Source: a virus
Length of the DNA stretch: 35,372 bases
IMG/VR virus record: IMGVR_UViG_3300046331_000020
Location: 1 to 35,372 of that record
Strand: one strand, 5' to 3'
In this document: piece by piece, positions 14,041 through 19,953 of the stretch
Numbering within the stretch: the stretch's first letter is position 1
Layout of the letters: each line of letters opens with the position of its first letter
Notes under the pieces: generated by a model
What the model saw: the letters and a program-made list of their open reading frames with translations, nothing else
The model's database searches: none
What the model was told of the DNA's origin: nothing
Position numbers and translations under genes: made by a program

Positions 14041-15078
14041 TTAGTCGTCCAGAATGTTATGGAATCCTTTTAGTAGGAAAATCCACTGTGGTCTATTAAC
14101 GTTAAAATTTGAAATTTTCTTGGGCTTGTTCAAAGAGTATTCATGTTCACCAAGTTCTGCCAAAGTTTCTCTCATTTGCCATCTGTGAGTATTCGGGTTT
14201 CCTTTGATTTTGGTGAATGGTTCATTGGTATTAATAGCCCATCTTTGGAAATCATCAGTATTAAAGAATCCAATAATTCTTTCTGCTTTTTCTCCTCCTT
14301 GAATCATAGTCCTGTGTTCATATAATGCAGTATACCAGTCTAAGTTGAAGATACAATACCATCTAAGATCATTTACAGTTTCTAGCTTCTTGGGAGAAGC
14401 CTTAATCATCGGATCAAAAAACTCTAATAGATTAGAGTCGATATGTTTCTCGTATGACTCATAAATTGTCTTTGGTGTGCCAAGAGTATGGTGAAACATT
14501 GCAGTTTCTCCTGTGGCAAAGAAATCGTCTGTTGGTCCAAATAGTTGATTACCACACATCCCACTAACGTAAATACAATCAGTTTCCTGATACGCTAACT
14601 CATTATCTGTTGCAGTTTGTATAATGTATTTGAATTCGTGCTTTAGTCTTCTATCGAACATATCGCCAGATTCGATAATAGAATTATATGTACCATATAT
14701 CCTAACTTGTTCTGGATCATTAGCATAATGTCTTAAAAGAAGAAGGATATATGTACTGTCGATTCCACCTGACCATAGAACATAGATGGTCTTACCTGTA
14801 GCTAGAAGTTGTTTGGCTCTTTCTTCAGCTACTGCATTAAAAGATTTTGTAGAAAACCCTAATGGGATTGGATGGATATCTTTAGCTATGTTTAAGTAGT
14901 GTGGAATAGACTTAGTTCTATCATACACCATATTATGTTTGTTCAACCCAAACTTGTTGTATGTGTCGAGAAGGTTATCGCTATATTCTTCTGACAAGAA
15001 TGGTGCCATAAGATGTTTTTTACTTTGAATTATCTCTGGTACGATGTGGGTGTTATAGTATAGAATCTCTGGTCTCAT
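14041..15078 (-). CDS. PP-loop ATPase, asparagine-synthase-like
   Basis: A 345-residue nucleotide-binding enzyme. LWSGGIDSTYI at 101-111 holds the PP-loop signature SGGxDS, which binds ATP and adenylates a carboxylate or similar group. VSGMCGNQLFGP at 171-182 resembles the second conserved loop of asparagine synthase domains (SG-x-x-x-[DN]-x-LFG). There is no N-terminal Ntn glutaminase domain: the chain starts MRPEILYY with no Cys at position 2, so it would need free ammonia or another nucleophile. The product is unknown; amide formation, tRNA or peptide modification are all possible. The gene has its own GATAAATA promoter and an AAGGAT site, and is preceded by a strong terminator, so it is a separate cassette within the fibre region. 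No signal peptide, so cytosolic. Confidence 0.8.
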   Translation of the reverse strand: MRPEILYYNTHIVPEIIQSKKHLMAPFLSEEYSDNLLDTYNKFGLNKHNMVYDRTKSIPHYLNIAKDIHPIPLGFSTKSFNAVAEERAKQLLATGKTIYVLWSGGIDSTYILLLLRHYANDPEQVRIYGTYNSIIESGDMFDRRLKHEFKYIIQTATDNELAYQETDCIYVSGMCGNQLFGPTDDFFATGETAMFHHTLGTPKTIYESYEKHIDSNLLEFFDPMIKASPKKLETVNDLRWYCIFNLDWYTALYEHRTMIQGGEKAERIIGFFNTDDFQRWAINTNEPFTKIKGNPNTHRWQMRETLAELGEHEYSLNKPKKISNFNVNRPQWIFLLKGFHNILDD

Positions 15079-15133: not shown

Positions 15134-16081
15134 TTAGTGTAGTTGAATCTTCTCAACTAGACCTGGAGTGAAGTAGTCAGCAAACTTAGCGTAAACTGGA
15201 GCAGTGACTTCTTTGAAACGTGCTTCTTGTTCAGCAGTCATCTTAACAACTTCAACACCCTCAGCTTCACATTGAGCCAAGATGTTTGGAATATCAGCAA
15301 CAGATTCACGACGCTCTTGACGAGCAGCATTGAATGCAGCAGTAGACAAGATTTCTTGAGTTTCAGCATCGAACTGCTTGAAGAAGTCTTGGTTAACGAT
15401 GATAGAAGTCAAGAACAAGCTATGTGCTGTATCATTAACAACTTTGAAAGACTTATGTTGATCTAATGGGAACACACGAACGTAAGTAGATTCACCAGCT
15501 TCAATAACTCCAGAGTCAGCTGCAGCGTTCATTTCTTCTAAAGCGATGTGCTCATTAGGAATAGCGCCAAGCAACTTGAATGTCTCAACAGCAACAGGAG
15601 AACGGCTAGTGCGAACAGTGCGACCTTGCCATGCTTCTACAGTATCAGCCTTAAAGTTAGCTGGAACAACACGGTATCCACCAGAGTAAGTGAAAGACAT
15701 AGCGTGAGTGTTAGAATTAGCAGCAACGCCAGCCAATAGATCCATACCAATAGAACCTTCTAACACTACATCAGCGTGATCGTGGTCACGGAACAGGAAT
15801 GGAAGATCTAGGGCGTGCAGGTCTTTGTTGTAATCAGCTAACCAAGTAGTGTAGATATGGCTCATTTCAATAGTGCCATTATCAACTAATTGCATCAAAG
15901 CATCTTTAGTGATTTTCTTGCCACCGTTATATTTGTTAGTATAGTCAGTTAAAGAAAGAACTTCGATGTCGAAAGCACCATTAGTTTTCTCATTAACTTC
16001 TTTAGCGAAACGCTCCGCTACTTTTAAAAATAAGCCAATAGGTTCGTGTGCGATCACCCATTTTACATGCTTAATAGTCAT
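15134..16081 (-). CDS. TRAP-type (DctP family) solute-binding protein without signal peptide
   Basis: A 315-residue protein with the whole fold of periplasmic solute-binding proteins of TRAP transporters. It has the VKWVIAHEP first strand, KVAERFAKEVNEKTNGAFDI, the LDLPFLFRDHDHA segment at 91-103 and WQGRTVRTSRSPVAVETFKL at 151-170. R157 sits where the family keeps the arginine that grips the ligand carboxylate. NQDFFKQFDAETQEIL follows near 230. Such proteins normally have an export signal; here the chain begins MTIKHVKW directly at the mature fold, with no hydrophobic N-terminus. No DctQ or DctM membrane gene is nearby. It overlaps the 103-aa gene by four bases (ATGA) after a good AGGAG site, and ends at a strong terminator. 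A virion-displayed or ligand-sequestering role is inference. Confidence 0.88.
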   Translation of the reverse strand: MTIKHVKWVIAHEPIGLFLKVAERFAKEVNEKTNGAFDIEVLSLTDYTNKYNGGKKITKDALMQLVDNGTIEMSHIYTTWLADYNKDLHALDLPFLFRDHDHADVVLEGSIGMDLLAGVAANSNTHAMSFTYSGGYRVVPANFKADTVEAWQGRTVRTSRSPVAVETFKLLGAIPNEHIALEEMNAAADSGVIEAGESTYVRVFPLDQHKSFKVVNDTAHSLFLTSIIVNQDFFKQFDAETQEILSTAAFNAARQERRESVADIPNILAQCEAEGVEVVKMTAEQEARFKEVTAPVYAKFADYFTPGLVEKIQLH

Positions 16082-16389
16082 TCGGTTTCTCCTAATTTGC
16101 TGGTATCAAATATCCAGCTTTGTGTTTGTTCTTTAAAATTCATAAATCTTTTAATCACAGTTACTCTGTTATTTATAAGATTTCTCATTGTATTTATGTC
16201 AGGAATCTCTTCCTTATTTAGGATATCAGAGACTGGAATCACCGTGTCTCTGTGTCCATATTCTTTAGTGTTCGAGTCGTATATAAAGTAATCTTTCATC
16301 GAAAACCACTCCAAGTTACCGTCCCCTTGTTCAATAGATCTTGGAAACTGTCTAATCTCGATTACATATCCATTAATAAATGAACTCAT
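16078..16389 (-). CDS. Small protein of unknown function between the radical SAM and TRAP genes
   Basis: A 103-residue protein I do not recognise. It has no cysteine, no signal peptide and no membrane segment. The N-terminal half alternates hydrophobic and polar residues (GYVIEIRQF, LEWFSMKDYFIYDS), suggesting beta strands, and the second half (TMRNLINNRVTVIKRF) looks helical. It is translationally coupled on both sides by ATGA overlaps: with the radical SAM stop at 16386-16389 and with the TRAP-type start at 16078-16081. Such coupling suggests the three products work together. Its size would suit a substrate-carrying or leader-binding adaptor for the radical SAM enzyme, but no sequence motif proves this. 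Confidence 0.75.
   Translation of the reverse strand: MSSFINGYVIEIRQFPRSIEQGDGNLEWFSMKDYFIYDSNTKEYGHRDTVIPVSDILNKEEIPDINTMRNLINNRVTVIKRFMNFKEQTQSWIFDTSKLGETE
16170..16177 (-). promoter_or_regulatory. Possible internal late promoter ahead of the TRAP-type gene
   Basis: An exact TATAAATA on the minus strand inside the 103-aa gene, about 90 bases before the TRAP-type start. Two related boxes lie just upstream (CATAAATA at 16191-16198 and CTAAATA at 16215-16221). The DNA is AT-rich, so chance matches are possible. Confidence 0.4.
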
Positions 16390-17774
16390 GCTGCTACAAT
16401 AGGAATGATTTTTTTAGGTTTTCTAACCTTCTCTGGTTTACCTTTAGTCCACCAGAAGATATCTTTACGGTCTTCTCTTAGTGGACCATCAATATACTCT
16501 GGAATGCAACCTGTCATTTCTTCGATAGCAATACAAAATTCTACAATATTGTCACTATATGCATTGTCACAAGAGGCTTCCCATAGTGGTCCAGTTAAGA
16601 ACATACAAGCACCCTTACAAATATGAATAACTGGGCAGCTTGGGCATTCTTTACGATCACTCCAGTGTGTTCCAGTATCGAGCCTTGTATTAGCTAAGTC
16701 TGAAACAGTACCTAGTTTGTGTGAAAATCCAGATGGATTGTTAGACACAGAACTAACGTTTTGGCAAGTTAAAACATTTCCGTTTAAGTCTACTGCTATG
16801 TTTTCTGCTTTGTCCATACCACATTTTTGTGGCAGAGATTCTATTCGAGTACCATCTATAATAGAGGTAACAAAACCTGAAACCTTTTGGCCAATCGTGG
16901 CAAATCTACTAACCTTACCAGTACGTAACTCGTCCAGCGCCACAGATCTAAATCGAATATCTTCTTCACCATCCAACAACGAATTGGCCATACCACCTTC
17001 GTCATAAGCATCAACAAACGTGCCTTCGCCTATAACCAAATGTTGAATATAATCTGCACCGATTTCATTAGCTACAAATTTAACAAAGAATGCTTCTATT
17101 CCCGCACGACTAATATTTTTAGAGTTAATCATAGAATTAAAACTAAACATCTTCTTTGGGGCGAGACGTTTGTATAAATCTATGATACCGATTTTAGAAT
17201 CTGGATCATCTAATGGATCTGGACCACGCACTGGTTGTCCTGGTCCATCATGGGATACTGCCACCCCGAATCCCATTGATTCTAACCAATCATTCTTTTC
17301 TTTATCTAATAAACTACCATTGGTAATTACTGACATAGACCCGTTAGGATACTTAGCCTTAATAGCTTCTGCTAATGGCTTAAATGTTTTCCAATAGACA
17401 AAAGGTTCTCCACCCCAAAACTCGAAGTGTGAACCTTTTCCTAAACCATCTTCTCCACCTTCATACCAATTGCTCATATTAGCAACAAACGGATCTACGT
17501 CATTAAGATTAGTAGAATCTGCATGTGGAACAAAACGCTGATTGCAGTAATCGCATTCAAAATTACAAGAAAGACCCAACTGAATTTTAATAGTCTTTAG
17601 GTTTTTCTTACCATGCTCAATCTTAGCTGGCTCTTTAACTTCATCTTGTATCTTAACGTTACTAAGAATTGGTGTATCATCACCCCACTTTAGTAAACTT
17701 AATGAACTATCATAAGTTATTTTTTTATGAGTACTGTCCGCTGGGCACCATGCTGTAATATCAAAAATCGCCAT
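16386..17774 (-). CDS. Radical SAM/SPASM protein- or peptide-modifying enzyme
   Basis: A 462-residue enzyme. The radical SAM cluster motif CX3CX2C is at C70, C74 and C77 (SCNFECDYC), followed by the SAM-binding FWGGEP at 119-124. The C-terminal SPASM domain is complete: C318, then G332-x4-C337, then C377-x2-C380-x5-C386-x3-C390, then C402, as in enzymes holding two auxiliary Fe4S4 clusters. Family members cross-link or oxidise side chains in peptides (RiPP maturases) or mature sulfatases. No sulfatase with a C/S-x-P-x-R site is in the window. The nearest Cys-rich candidate substrate is the 393-aa fibre encoded two genes upstream. The gene has its own promoter/terminator element and a GAGG site, and is coupled to the 103-aa gene. 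The substrate is unproven. Confidence 0.93.
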   Translation of the reverse strand: MAIFDITAWCPADSTHKKITYDSSLSLLKWGDDTPILSNVKIQDEVKEPAKIEHGKKNLKTIKIQLGLSCNFECDYCNQRFVPHADSTNLNDVDPFVANMSNWYEGGEDGLGKGSHFEFWGGEPFVYWKTFKPLAEAIKAKYPNGSMSVITNGSLLDKEKNDWLESMGFGVAVSHDGPGQPVRGPDPLDDPDSKIGIIDLYKRLAPKKMFSFNSMINSKNISRAGIEAFFVKFVANEIGADYIQHLVIGEGTFVDAYDEGGMANSLLDGEEDIRFRSVALDELRTGKVSRFATIGQKVSGFVTSIIDGTRIESLPQKCGMDKAENIAVDLNGNVLTCQNVSSVSNNPSGFSHKLGTVSDLANTRLDTGTHWSDRKECPSCPVIHICKGACMFLTGPLWEASCDNAYSDNIVEFCIAIEEMTGCIPEYIDGPLREDRKDIFWWTKGKPEKVRKPKKIIPIVAA

Positions 17775-17832: not shown

Positions 17833-18762
17833 TTAAAGTGTCTTAGTGAACGTGTTTCTGTTTACCCAGTATTTGAAACCCATCTTCACTCTAACTAAAT
17901 CACCAGAATTCATACCAGTTGTTACAACTTTAAATGAACCAGAACCATTGGTTACTGGAATTTTCAATTTAGGTAAGTATCCACTGTCTTGTACCAAGTA
18001 GATAAAGTCGACTTTATCTGATGTGACATCGAAATTAACTGTCAAAATATCATCAGTTTGTGCAGAAGAAGTGACATTAATTTCTGGCATTAGTTCAAAT
18101 GTTAATCTGATAATAGGATCCAGCGGATGTTTAGTTAAATTACCAGTAAAAGTCACTGTATGCTCTGCATAGTTAGTACCAGCTAAATCAATGTTGAAGT
18201 ATTCAATTTCTGGAGTGTTATTCCAATATTCACCGTCAGCTTTAACTGCTGGTCTAATGATAACAGGAATAATATCATCTGCAGATGGGTTATCTTTAGT
18301 TACAAAGAACGCAATCACTGTAGCATCACCAAAGGTGTTAAAATCTTTTGTTGGTAATGTATTAGCATATGAGTTGATTAAATCACCCTCAAGTACAGTG
18401 TGTTCTTGTGCATCTGCAGTTTCATCGTCTGGAGTGTTTGTATTAACAACAGAATCTTTAATATACCATAAAGTTTGTCCATCAGCAGTGCTAAACATGC
18501 TGGTGTCAATTTTAAATTTATTGATTACTCTGTTCGAAGTTTCATTTTTGAAAACAACATTCAATATTGTTCCAGATAAATTCAAATCCCAATTAAATGT
18601 TACAGGAATTTCCTGAAAGTTAGTATCAGTCCACTCTGTCTCTGTTGGAAACTCTCCAGCCCACTCTACATCGGGTAGAGACTGTTGGAACAATGTGTTT
18701 GGAATAGCACCCTTTTGTGAAAGATATCTTCTTTTGTATTGTATTTTAGTTACGTATTGCAT
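17833..18762 (-). CDS. Virion-region protein of unknown function, 309 aa
   Basis: I do not recognise this 309-residue protein. It has no cysteine, no signal peptide and no repeated shaft elements. Alternating strands such as IPVTFNWDLNLSGTILNVVF, ATVIAFFVTKDN and HTVTFTGNL suggest an all-beta protein, perhaps two or three sandwich domains. The C-terminus VRVKMGFKYWVNRNTFTKTL is basic and aromatic. It starts 10 bases after the Cys-rich fibre stop behind an AAGGAT site and ends just before the terminator-like hairpin, so it shares a transcript with that fibre. Position suggests a fibre partner, chaperone or distal adhesin; none of these is shown by the sequence. Confidence 0.72.
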   Translation of the reverse strand: MQYVTKIQYKRRYLSQKGAIPNTLFQQSLPDVEWAGEFPTETEWTDTNFQEIPVTFNWDLNLSGTILNVVFKNETSNRVINKFKIDTSMFSTADGQTLWYIKDSVVNTNTPDDETADAQEHTVLEGDLINSYANTLPTKDFNTFGDATVIAFFVTKDNPSADDIIPVIIRPAVKADGEYWNNTPEIEYFNIDLAGTNYAEHTVTFTGNLTKHPLDPIIRLTFELMPEINVTSSAQTDDILTVNFDVTSDKVDFIYLVQDSGYLPKLKIPVTNGSGSFKVVTTGMNSGDLVRVKMGFKYWVNRNTFTKTL

Positions 18763-18771
18763 ATGTTATCC

Positions 18772-19953
18772 TTAGCAGTTGCAATTACAGTTAGTGCAAT
18801 TGTAGTAATGGTGATGCGGATCCATGTTGTGGTTCGTATCTAAGTGCAGACGCATATAACAGTTGATGATAACGTTACCGCAGTTACCACCAGCGGCACC
18901 AGCGCCACGCCCAATGGAGGCGTTGTTGTGGTTACCATGCTTAGTGTTATGTGGAACCCATCCACCGTAGTTACCTAAGTCGTTTGCAAACTGAGATAGG
19001 TGCCCCGGACGACCAGAGACATTACCCCATGCAACAGAAGAAGCAGAACCAGCGTTGCCACCAATGTTTGTTACTGTAACAGCACCCGTCATACCTTGTA
19101 CAGATGTGACTGGGACAGAAACTACAACAGCACCCGTCATACCTTGTACAGATGTAACGTTTGCATTGATAGTTGGATTGCCAGCAACACCATTACCATT
19201 ATCAACAGTAATACCAGCGCCTGCAACGATAGAACGTGCAGCAGCGACACCAGAAGATGTGATAGTAGTAAGACCAGCACCAACACTAGACAGTGCTGCT
19301 AAGTTAGCAGCGTAAGCCTGGACATCTGTACCAATACGAACACCCAATGTTCCACGAGCAGTGGCAGCATCAGCATCGTCAATTAATGTACGACCATATG
19401 ACGAAAGAGTAGTTGTGCTCGCAGTACCTGAACCAGTGAAGTATGGCAGAGCATCAACGCCAGAAGTAACAGAAGCTAATGCTGCTAATTCATAGTCAAA
19501 TGCTTGTACGTCTGTGCCGATAGCTAAACCAAGAGCAGTGCGAGCACCAGCAGCAGTACTAGAACCAGTACCACCGTCAGCAATAGACAAGTCTGTAATA
19601 CCAGTAATAGTACCAGAAGTGATTGCAGCAACTCCAGTATGAGTACCAGAGAAGTTGGTAGCTGTAATAACGTTAGCTGAGAAGTTACCACCAGAACGAG
19701 TTACAACGCTATTACCAGCTTGGTCTGTGGAGCTAGTGTTTAAGCCATCAAGTAAATCAGCGTCTAGCCCAGAGCCAGATCCATCGACAGTTACTAACTT
19801 AGCCAGTACATCTGCAGCAGTATAGCTAGCAGCAGTTTGGGCTAATTGAAGTTGTGTGTTTAAGTTATTAAAGTTTGCATCGACTTCAGCGTTAGTAAGA
19901 GGACTACCCTTACCAGCACGAGTCGTGATTGTTGCAGCGTTAACTGATGCCAT
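18772..19953 (-). CDS. Tail fibre protein with His/Asn/Cys-rich C-terminal tail
   Basis: A 393-residue fibre. The N-terminus ([20 protein letters not shown], then NNLN) is a common fibre start. The shaft contains [20 protein letters not shown], two copies of IGTDVQA[FY] and two copies of [31 protein letters not shown] element near 308-327 leads into the tip. The last 60 residues are unusual: [38 protein letters not shown] and a final NCTNCNCNC. All six cysteines (358, 365, 386, 389, 391, 393) lie in the last 36 residues, and each directly follows Asn. HxH pairs recall the metal-binding tip of the T4 long fibre. It follows the 75-aa coiled-coil gene and is two genes upstream of the radical SAM enzyme. 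The stop codon directly follows the final Cys codon. Confidence 0.87.
19079..19155 (-). repeat. Direct repeat in the Cys-tailed fibre gene
   Basis: A 29-base segment at 19079-19107 recurs exactly at 19127-19155, a 48-base period. It encodes two copies of [11 protein letters not shown] spaced 16 residues apart, an element common in phage fibre shafts. The near-identity at DNA level suggests a recent duplication. Confidence 0.8.

What the first reader, a model, noticed from the sequence alone, without database searches (positions are those of the whole stretch)
18772..18966. Fibre C-terminus in which every cysteine follows an asparagine
Seen: in the 393-aa fibre all six Cys (358, 365, 386, 389, 391, 393) are preceded by Asn, ending NCTNCNCNC at the stop codon, with DPHHHYY and several other His just before. 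The rest of the protein has no Cys. Known: the T4 long-fibre tip binds iron through HxH motifs. Inference: a metal site, a redox or crosslinked knot, or an enzyme-recognised tail. A run ending exactly at the C-terminus is unusual for a fibre.
Basis: partly seen in the sequence, partly recalled or inferred. Interest (0 to 1): 0.78.

Follow-up and report, generated by a model that had tools for sequence, protein, structure and literature searches.

The report
Phage fibre tip with paired modification enzyme
A marine bacteriophage fibre ends in repeated asparagine-cysteine pairs, and this ending is almost always encoded beside a radical SAM enzyme of the kind that rewires cysteines in peptide antibiotics, so these viruses probably modify the tips of their own receptor-binding fibres chemically, which to my knowledge has not been described.

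Summary
In detail: all six Cys of the 393-aa fibre follow Asn, and the chain ends NCTNCNCNC at the stop codon. It is not chance. Only 1 of 58 Cys in the other window proteins follows Asn.

The key lies outside the given coordinates. Two genes downstream is a radical SAM/SPASM enzyme (16386-17774) whose best relatives are peptide thioether maturases (PapB, QhpD, CteB). In loci chosen by this enzyme alone, 26 of 27 viral and 36 of 42 bacterial clusters carry an (x)C-run protein, mostly ending NCNC, within 6 kb. In loci chosen only for a DNA pattern encoding NCNCNC-stop, 63 of 74 fibre-type genes have the enzyme in the same record; the other 11 stop within 1.5 kb of the contig end. Fibre, enzyme and neighbours are exchanged as one cassette between phages whose flanks are 93-96% identical. 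In other clades the tail is followed directly by a self-cleaving Hint domain, or oxygenase genes join the cassette.

Best explanation: the enzyme modifies Asn-Cys dyads of the fibre tip, probably forming thioethers. The chemistry is inferred. The metal/His idea fails: the histidines are replaced by tyrosines in relatives; the N-C dyads are kept.

The parts
18772..19953 (-). tail fibre, 393 aa; proposed substrate
   Evidence: ORF; PHROG tail-fibre hits; relatives with 59-99% identity
18775..18801 (-). terminal run NCTNCNCNC (residues 385-393)
   Evidence: sequence; kept in relatives
18772..18966 (-). C-terminal region with all six Asn-Cys dyads (residues 330-393 and stop)
16386..17774 (-). radical SAM/SPASM enzyme, 462 aa; proposed fibre-tip maturase
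   Evidence: PF04055 1e-5; phrog_1802 8e-59; SPASM TIGR04085 above cut-off, best specific model PapB; AF2 model pLDDT 89.6, closest to CteB
17544..17567 (-). radical SAM cluster motif C70-x3-C74-x2-C77
   Evidence: invariant in 36 sequences
16569..16823 (-). SPASM domain with seven Cys (C318, C337, C377, C380, C386, C390, C402)
   Evidence: all invariant in 36 sequences
17833..18762 (-). 309-aa protein with a shared C-terminal ~75-aa domain, between fibre and enzyme
   Evidence: domain found in 64 of 84 enzyme loci and otherwise only beside NC tails
16078..16389 (-). 103-aa protein of unknown function, overlaps enzyme and next gene by 4 bases
14041..15078 (-). 345-aa ATP-pyrophosphatase-type protein with the fold of the synthetase domain of beta-lactam/asparagine synthetase; possible second tailoring enzyme
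   Evidence: SGGIDST motif nearly fully invariant; AF2 pLDDT 91.5; fold matches
15134..16081 (-). TRAP-type solute-binding protein (DctP family) inside the cassette, role unclear
   Evidence: PF03480 7e-44; exchanged with the cassette

Best explanation
The fibre and the radical SAM/SPASM enzyme are a substrate-maturase pair carried as one exchangeable host-recognition cassette. During infection the enzyme acts on Asn-Cys dyads in the C-terminal domain and terminal (NC)n run of the fibre, as related enzymes act on Cys-rich peptides, most likely forming carbon-sulfur (thioether) links from Cys. This would give the distal fibre tip a rigid, reduction-proof cap below the variable receptor-binding domain. 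Shown: the tail, its conservation, the enzyme family and the near-complete co-occurrence. Inferred: that this enzyme modifies this tail. More weakly inferred: thioether chemistry and a structural or receptor-binding role.
For: Forward test: loci chosen by the enzyme alone have a tail protein within 6 kb in 26/27 viral and 36/42 bacterial clusters (<90% identity); two of the seven misses (L122, L271) do carry such runs, outside the strict rule. Reverse test: loci chosen by a DNA pattern alone; 63 of 74 fibre-type genes have the enzyme in the record, the other 11 lie within 1.5 kb of a contig end; control matches outside genes 1/35. 57 fibres that share the N-terminal part but lack the tail have no enzyme in the held DNA. 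Cassette exchange: flanks 93-96% identical, fibre 67, 309-aa protein 30, enzyme 66, 103-aa 53, DctP 67, 345-aa 63%. All 36 aligned enzymes match PapB and QhpD maturase models; fold closest to CteB, Z 23.6 over 348 residues. Cys upstream of the terminal run also follow Asn (46/57 and 232/277), so the dyad is the unit. 93 of 103 counted tails end with Cys as the last residue; in nine clusters the run is followed directly by a Hint domain, whose self-cleavage would expose it. Cys-Asn S-Cbeta and Cys-Asp thioethers by such enzymes are known (PMC11002830).
Against: No biochemical data. Co-occurrence does not show catalysis. The enzyme is far below the cut-off of every named maturase family (52 against 340 bits for PapB), so its chemistry cannot be read off. 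The N-terminal extension has only three strands in the model, not a clear RiPP recognition element. Asn before Cys is often replaced by Ala or Asp in distant clades. Five enzyme loci with enough upstream DNA show no tail (L263, L286, L295, L304, L311).
Confidence: 0.75

Rival explanations
1. Same enzyme-substrate pair, different chemistry: the enzyme epimerises the Asn residues, oxidises Cys to formylglycine as anaerobic sulfatase maturases do, or makes backbone heterocycles, rather than thioethers.
For: anSME and the epimerase EpeE are also fold matches (Z 19.3 and 12.8); phage JWF's copy is annotated as anaerobic sulfatase maturase; alternating residues recall alternately epimerised peptides (own knowledge).
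Against: Best sequence models are thioether formers PapB and QhpD; CteB is the best fold match, Z 23.6.
Confidence: 0.3
2. The tail is an unmodified Cys/His metal or Fe-S site at the fibre tip, like the iron sites of the T4 long fibre; the radical SAM gene is linked for another reason.
For: HHH next to the tail in the window and close relatives; Cys every second residue could bind metal (inference).
Against: His not conserved, replaced by Tyr or lost while the NC dyads stay; does not explain the near-complete link to one enzyme family across phage and bacterial contigs.
Confidence: 0.1
3. The Cys form ordinary disulfides, within the chain or between the three chains of the fibre, after lysis.
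For: Multiple Cys at the tip of a presumably trimeric fibre (inference).
Against: Does not explain the Asn requirement or the enzyme.
Confidence: 0.1
4. Low-complexity DNA repeat or assembly artefact.
For: Short repeated codons.
Against: Synonymous codon variation between relatives; found in many independent assemblies and in isolated phages JWF and 2-1.
Confidence: 0.01

Closest known systems
Ranthipeptide/QHNDH maturases PapB, QhpD, CteB (radical SAM/SPASM thioether formers)
   Same: Radical SAM plus seven-Cys SPASM domain; encoded beside a Cys-rich substrate; best sequence and fold relatives
   Different: Substrate is a full-length phage fibre modified at or near its extreme C-terminus; no small leader-core peptide; enzyme below the curated cut-offs of these families
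Streptococcal Cys-Asn ranthipeptide (PMC11002830)
   Same: Radical SAM enzyme joining Cys to Asn
   Different: Small quorum-sensing-linked peptide, not a virion protein; spacing and sequence family not compared here
T4 long tail fibre tip with iron-binding HxH motifs
   Same: Fibre tip rich in metal-binding-type residues in the window phage
   Different: His not conserved; Asn-Cys dyads and a linked enzyme instead
Radical SAM gene cassettes in the host recognition cluster of pelagimyophages (PMC7029224)
   Same: Radical SAM genes noted near tail fibres as variable cassettes
   Different: No substrate or function was proposed in the passages read
Hint/intein-type self-cleaving domains
   Same: CFPAGT-type domain directly after the NC run in nine clusters, including phages JWF and 2-1
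   Different: Not present in the window fibre, which ends at the stop codon

Membership tests
Radical SAM superfamily | CxxxCxxC cluster motif and TIM-barrel core | tested here: met
   C70, C74, C77 invariant in 36 sequences; fold
SPASM subgroup | seven Cys binding two auxiliary clusters | tested here: met
   seven invariant Cys with the usual spacing; TIGR04085 32 bits, cut-off 27. Cluster binding itself was not tested
PapB ranthipeptide maturase (NF047865) | score above curated cut-off of 340 bits | tested here: not met
   52 bits, best match limited to residues 59-178
QhpD (TIGR03906) | score above curated cut-off of 453 bits | tested here: not met
   48 bits
Anaerobic sulfatase maturase (TIGR03942) | score above curated cut-off of 349 bits | tested here: not met
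   33.5 bits
Ranthipeptide/RiPP system | Cys-rich substrate encoded next to the maturase | tested here: met
Ranthipeptide/RiPP system | thioether crosslinks in the product | not testable with these tools
   needs mass spectrometry or NMR
Ranthipeptide/RiPP system | RiPP recognition element in the enzyme | tested here: inconclusive
   residues 1-50 modelled as three strands without the helices; aligned range with CteB starts at residue 1
Ranthipeptide/RiPP system | small precursor with leader removed by protease | tested here: not met
   substrate is a 393-aa fibre; in some relatives a C-terminal Hint domain would be removed instead
T4-type iron-binding fibre tip | conserved HxH motifs | tested here: not met
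   HHH replaced by YYY or absent in relatives

The most novel reading that the evidence does not exclude
Phages carry exchangeable RiPP-like cassettes (radical SAM/SPASM enzyme plus optional 2OG-Fe(II) oxygenases, a second radical SAM enzyme, an asparagine/beta-lactam-synthetase-like enzyme or Hint self-cleavage) that turn the C-terminus of a virion fibre into a covalently modified, multi-ring receptor-binding cap: a natural phage display of modified peptides and a new layer of host-range variation.
Probability: 0.5. Interest if true: 0.95.

Novelty: new variant of a known kind. Interest (0 to 1): 0.86.

Why it matters
No radical SAM-modified virion protein is known to me, and none turned up in the literature searches made here. 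If right, it gives a function to a widespread and unexplained group of phage radical SAM genes (PHROG 1802), and adds a chemical step to how phages recognise hosts. It is directly testable in isolated phages (Achromobacter JWF and 2-1), and would provide an enzyme family that modifies a simple, terminal, portable Asn-Cys tag on large proteins.

Tried and rejected
His/metal site: His not conserved. DNA-repeat artefact: synonymous codons vary. Jumbo phage CR5, which has radical SAM genes near virion genes, was checked for Cys tails in the neighbouring genes: none found, so it is probably a different system. Three unrelated families with an NCNCNC end and no radical SAM gene (202-aa, 185-aa and L178 types) were set aside as not fibre-type; they show that the tail can occur without the enzyme. 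One script misfiled L231 as unrelated; it is fibre-type with the enzyme in its locus, and I count it so. The NxxC spacing (own knowledge of the streptococcal family) does not fit every Cys of the window tail: only the -1 Asn is constant. Literature searches for radical SAM together with tail fibre, RiPP, ranthipeptide or peptide modification, and for Hint with tail fibre, gave no report of this link. PDB sequence search with the fibre: no match. Monomer structure prediction of the fibre tip was not run because a trimer is needed.

Full report
The observation. The fibre ORF at 18772-19953 (minus strand, 393 aa) has six Cys, at 358, 365, 386, 389, 391 and 393, all preceded by Asn, and ends NCTNCNCNC at the stop codon. 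Shuffling the protein 50,000 times never gave six NC dyads; shuffling the last 80 residues gave six once. In the other 24 window proteins 1 of 58 Cys follows Asn. PHROG matches place the window in a T4-like myovirus structural region (terminase, sheath stabiliser, baseplate wedges).

What lies next to it. The gene order downstream is fibre, a 309-aa protein, a 462-aa radical SAM/SPASM enzyme, a 103-aa protein, a DctP-type solute-binding protein and a 345-aa protein with an SGGIDST motif. The enzyme has the radical SAM motif C70/C74/C77 and seven SPASM cysteines, all invariant in 36 aligned relatives. Its best named models are PapB (ranthipeptide maturase) and QhpD, followed by other peptide maturases, all far below their curated cut-offs, while the general SPASM model is above its cut-off. 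The AlphaFold2 model (mean pLDDT 89.6) is closest to CteB, the SCIFF thioether maturase (VIA-align Z 23.6, 348 residues, rmsd 4.2), then ChlB, anSME and TigE.

Link between tail and enzyme, forward. I scanned viral contigs and bacterial genome contigs with the enzyme alone. After clustering at 90% identity and requiring 4.5 kb of upstream DNA, 26 of 27 viral and 36 of 42 bacterial clusters have an ORF with a terminal (x)C run or a Hint-fused run within 6 kb. Of the seven misses, L122 and L271 carry such runs outside the strict rule, L311 is a fragment, and L263, L286, L295 and L304 have none that I could find.

Link, reverse. 83 lie in an ORF of at least 80 codons. Nine belong to three unrelated families without the enzyme. 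Of the 74 fibre-type cases, 63 have the enzyme in the same record; the other 11 lie within 1.5 kb of the contig end in the direction where the enzyme would be. Of the 35 matches outside real genes, one record has the enzyme. Many contigs are near copies of each other, so these reverse counts are not independent events; the forward counts are clustered. Among loci found by fibre similarity, every enzyme-bearing locus has the tail, and 57 fibres that share only the N-terminal part have neither.

The cassette moves as a unit. Compared with the window, the phage in L118/L005 has flanking proteins 93-96% identical (2083-aa, 75-aa, 111-aa, 81-aa and 750-aa proteins), but fibre 67, 309-aa 30, enzyme 66, 103-aa 53, DctP 67 and 345-aa protein 63%. 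L107, L115 and L112 show a similar pattern, with flanks of 80-97%. This is what exchange of a host-recognition cassette that includes the enzyme would give. Gene overlaps (fibre/240-aa and 240-aa/enzyme in phages JWF and 2-1; enzyme/103-aa in the window) also point to joint expression.

What the tail is like elsewhere. Terminal runs have 1 to 8 xC units; the residue before Cys is mostly Asn, with Ala and Asp in distant clades. Cys upstream of the run also follow Asn (46 of 57; 232 of 277; background 11.5-13.7%), so the dyad rather than a fixed spacing is the unit. In 93 of 103 counted tails the last residue is Cys. In phages JWF and 2-1, Burkholderia paludis and several Rhodospirillales the run is followed at once by CFPAGT..., the start of a Hint domain; self-cleavage there would expose the run at a C-terminus (inference). 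Carriers fall into six sequence families after removal of the tail, from short proteins of about 90 aa, sometimes two or three in tandem, to one of more than 1000 aa. The DPHHH motif of the window is shared only by close relatives; others have YYY or nothing.

Other tailoring genes. In many freshwater and bacterial loci the gene just before the enzyme is a 2OG-Fe(II) oxygenase (PF13759, phrog_81), and L102 has three such genes; L274 has a second radical SAM gene there. In the window clade the 345-aa protein has the fold of the synthetase domain of beta-lactam and asparagine synthetases (Z 13.4 and 12.8), which activate carboxylates to form amides. These look like interchangeable tailoring genes, as in peptide natural-product clusters, but nothing shows that they act on the fibre.

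Mechanism. Shown: tail, conservation, enzyme family, co-occurrence and cassette exchange. Inferred with good support: the enzyme acts on the Asn-Cys dyads of the fibre. Inferred with weaker support: thioether links, because PapB, QhpD and CteB make them and a Cys-Asn S-Cbeta link is known in a streptococcal ranthipeptide (PMC11002830). An NCNC stretch contains NxxC, but not every Cys of the window tail has Asn at -3, so the partner atom is open. A rigid, reduction-proof cap at the distal fibre tip, under a variable domain, would fit a role in receptor binding or tip stability.

Prior knowledge. Radical SAM cassettes were noted in the host recognition cluster of pelagimyophages without a function (PMC7029224), and eight radical SAM genes lie in the structural gene cluster, with five tail fibre genes, of Aeromonas phage 332-Vera (PMC12390700). 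I found no paper linking phage radical SAM genes to a Cys tail on a fibre; subscription journals and preprints were not searchable.

Noticed in passing
window 15134-16081: A TRAP-type solute-binding protein (DctP) with no obvious signal peptide lies inside the fibre cassette; across phages it is about 66% or, in some, up to about 95% identical to the window copy, out of step with its neighbours.
   Followed up: partly
L129 9814-11265 (Achromobacter phage JWF gp028) and L128, L270, L285, L298-L301: Hint domain directly after the NC run; it could also ligate the fibre end to another molecule instead of only cleaving.
   Followed up: partly
L143, L171, L189, L204, L222 (202-aa protein); L140, L184, L196 (185-aa protein): Unrelated phage proteins ending NCNCNC without a radical SAM gene in the record.
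   Followed up: no
L286 and L304: Relatives of the enzyme without a tail protein; L286 has an ABC transporter-like gene upstream, possibly an ordinary peptide natural-product locus.
   Followed up: no
L125 2790-3600, L231, L237: Three small NC-tailed proteins of about 87 aa in tandem, sharing one radical SAM gene in L125 and L231.
   Followed up: no
window 17833-18762: The 309-aa protein has a conserved C-terminal ~75-aa domain and a variable N-terminal part; the domain occurs in 64 of 84 enzyme loci and elsewhere only beside NC tails.
   Followed up: partly
window 19075-19160: Direct repeat encoding [11 protein letters not shown] twice in the fibre shaft.
   Followed up: no
Aeromonas phage 332-Vera (PMC12390700), not in the window: Eight radical SAM genes reported within the structural gene cluster that holds five tail fibre genes; not compared with this family.
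   Followed up: no
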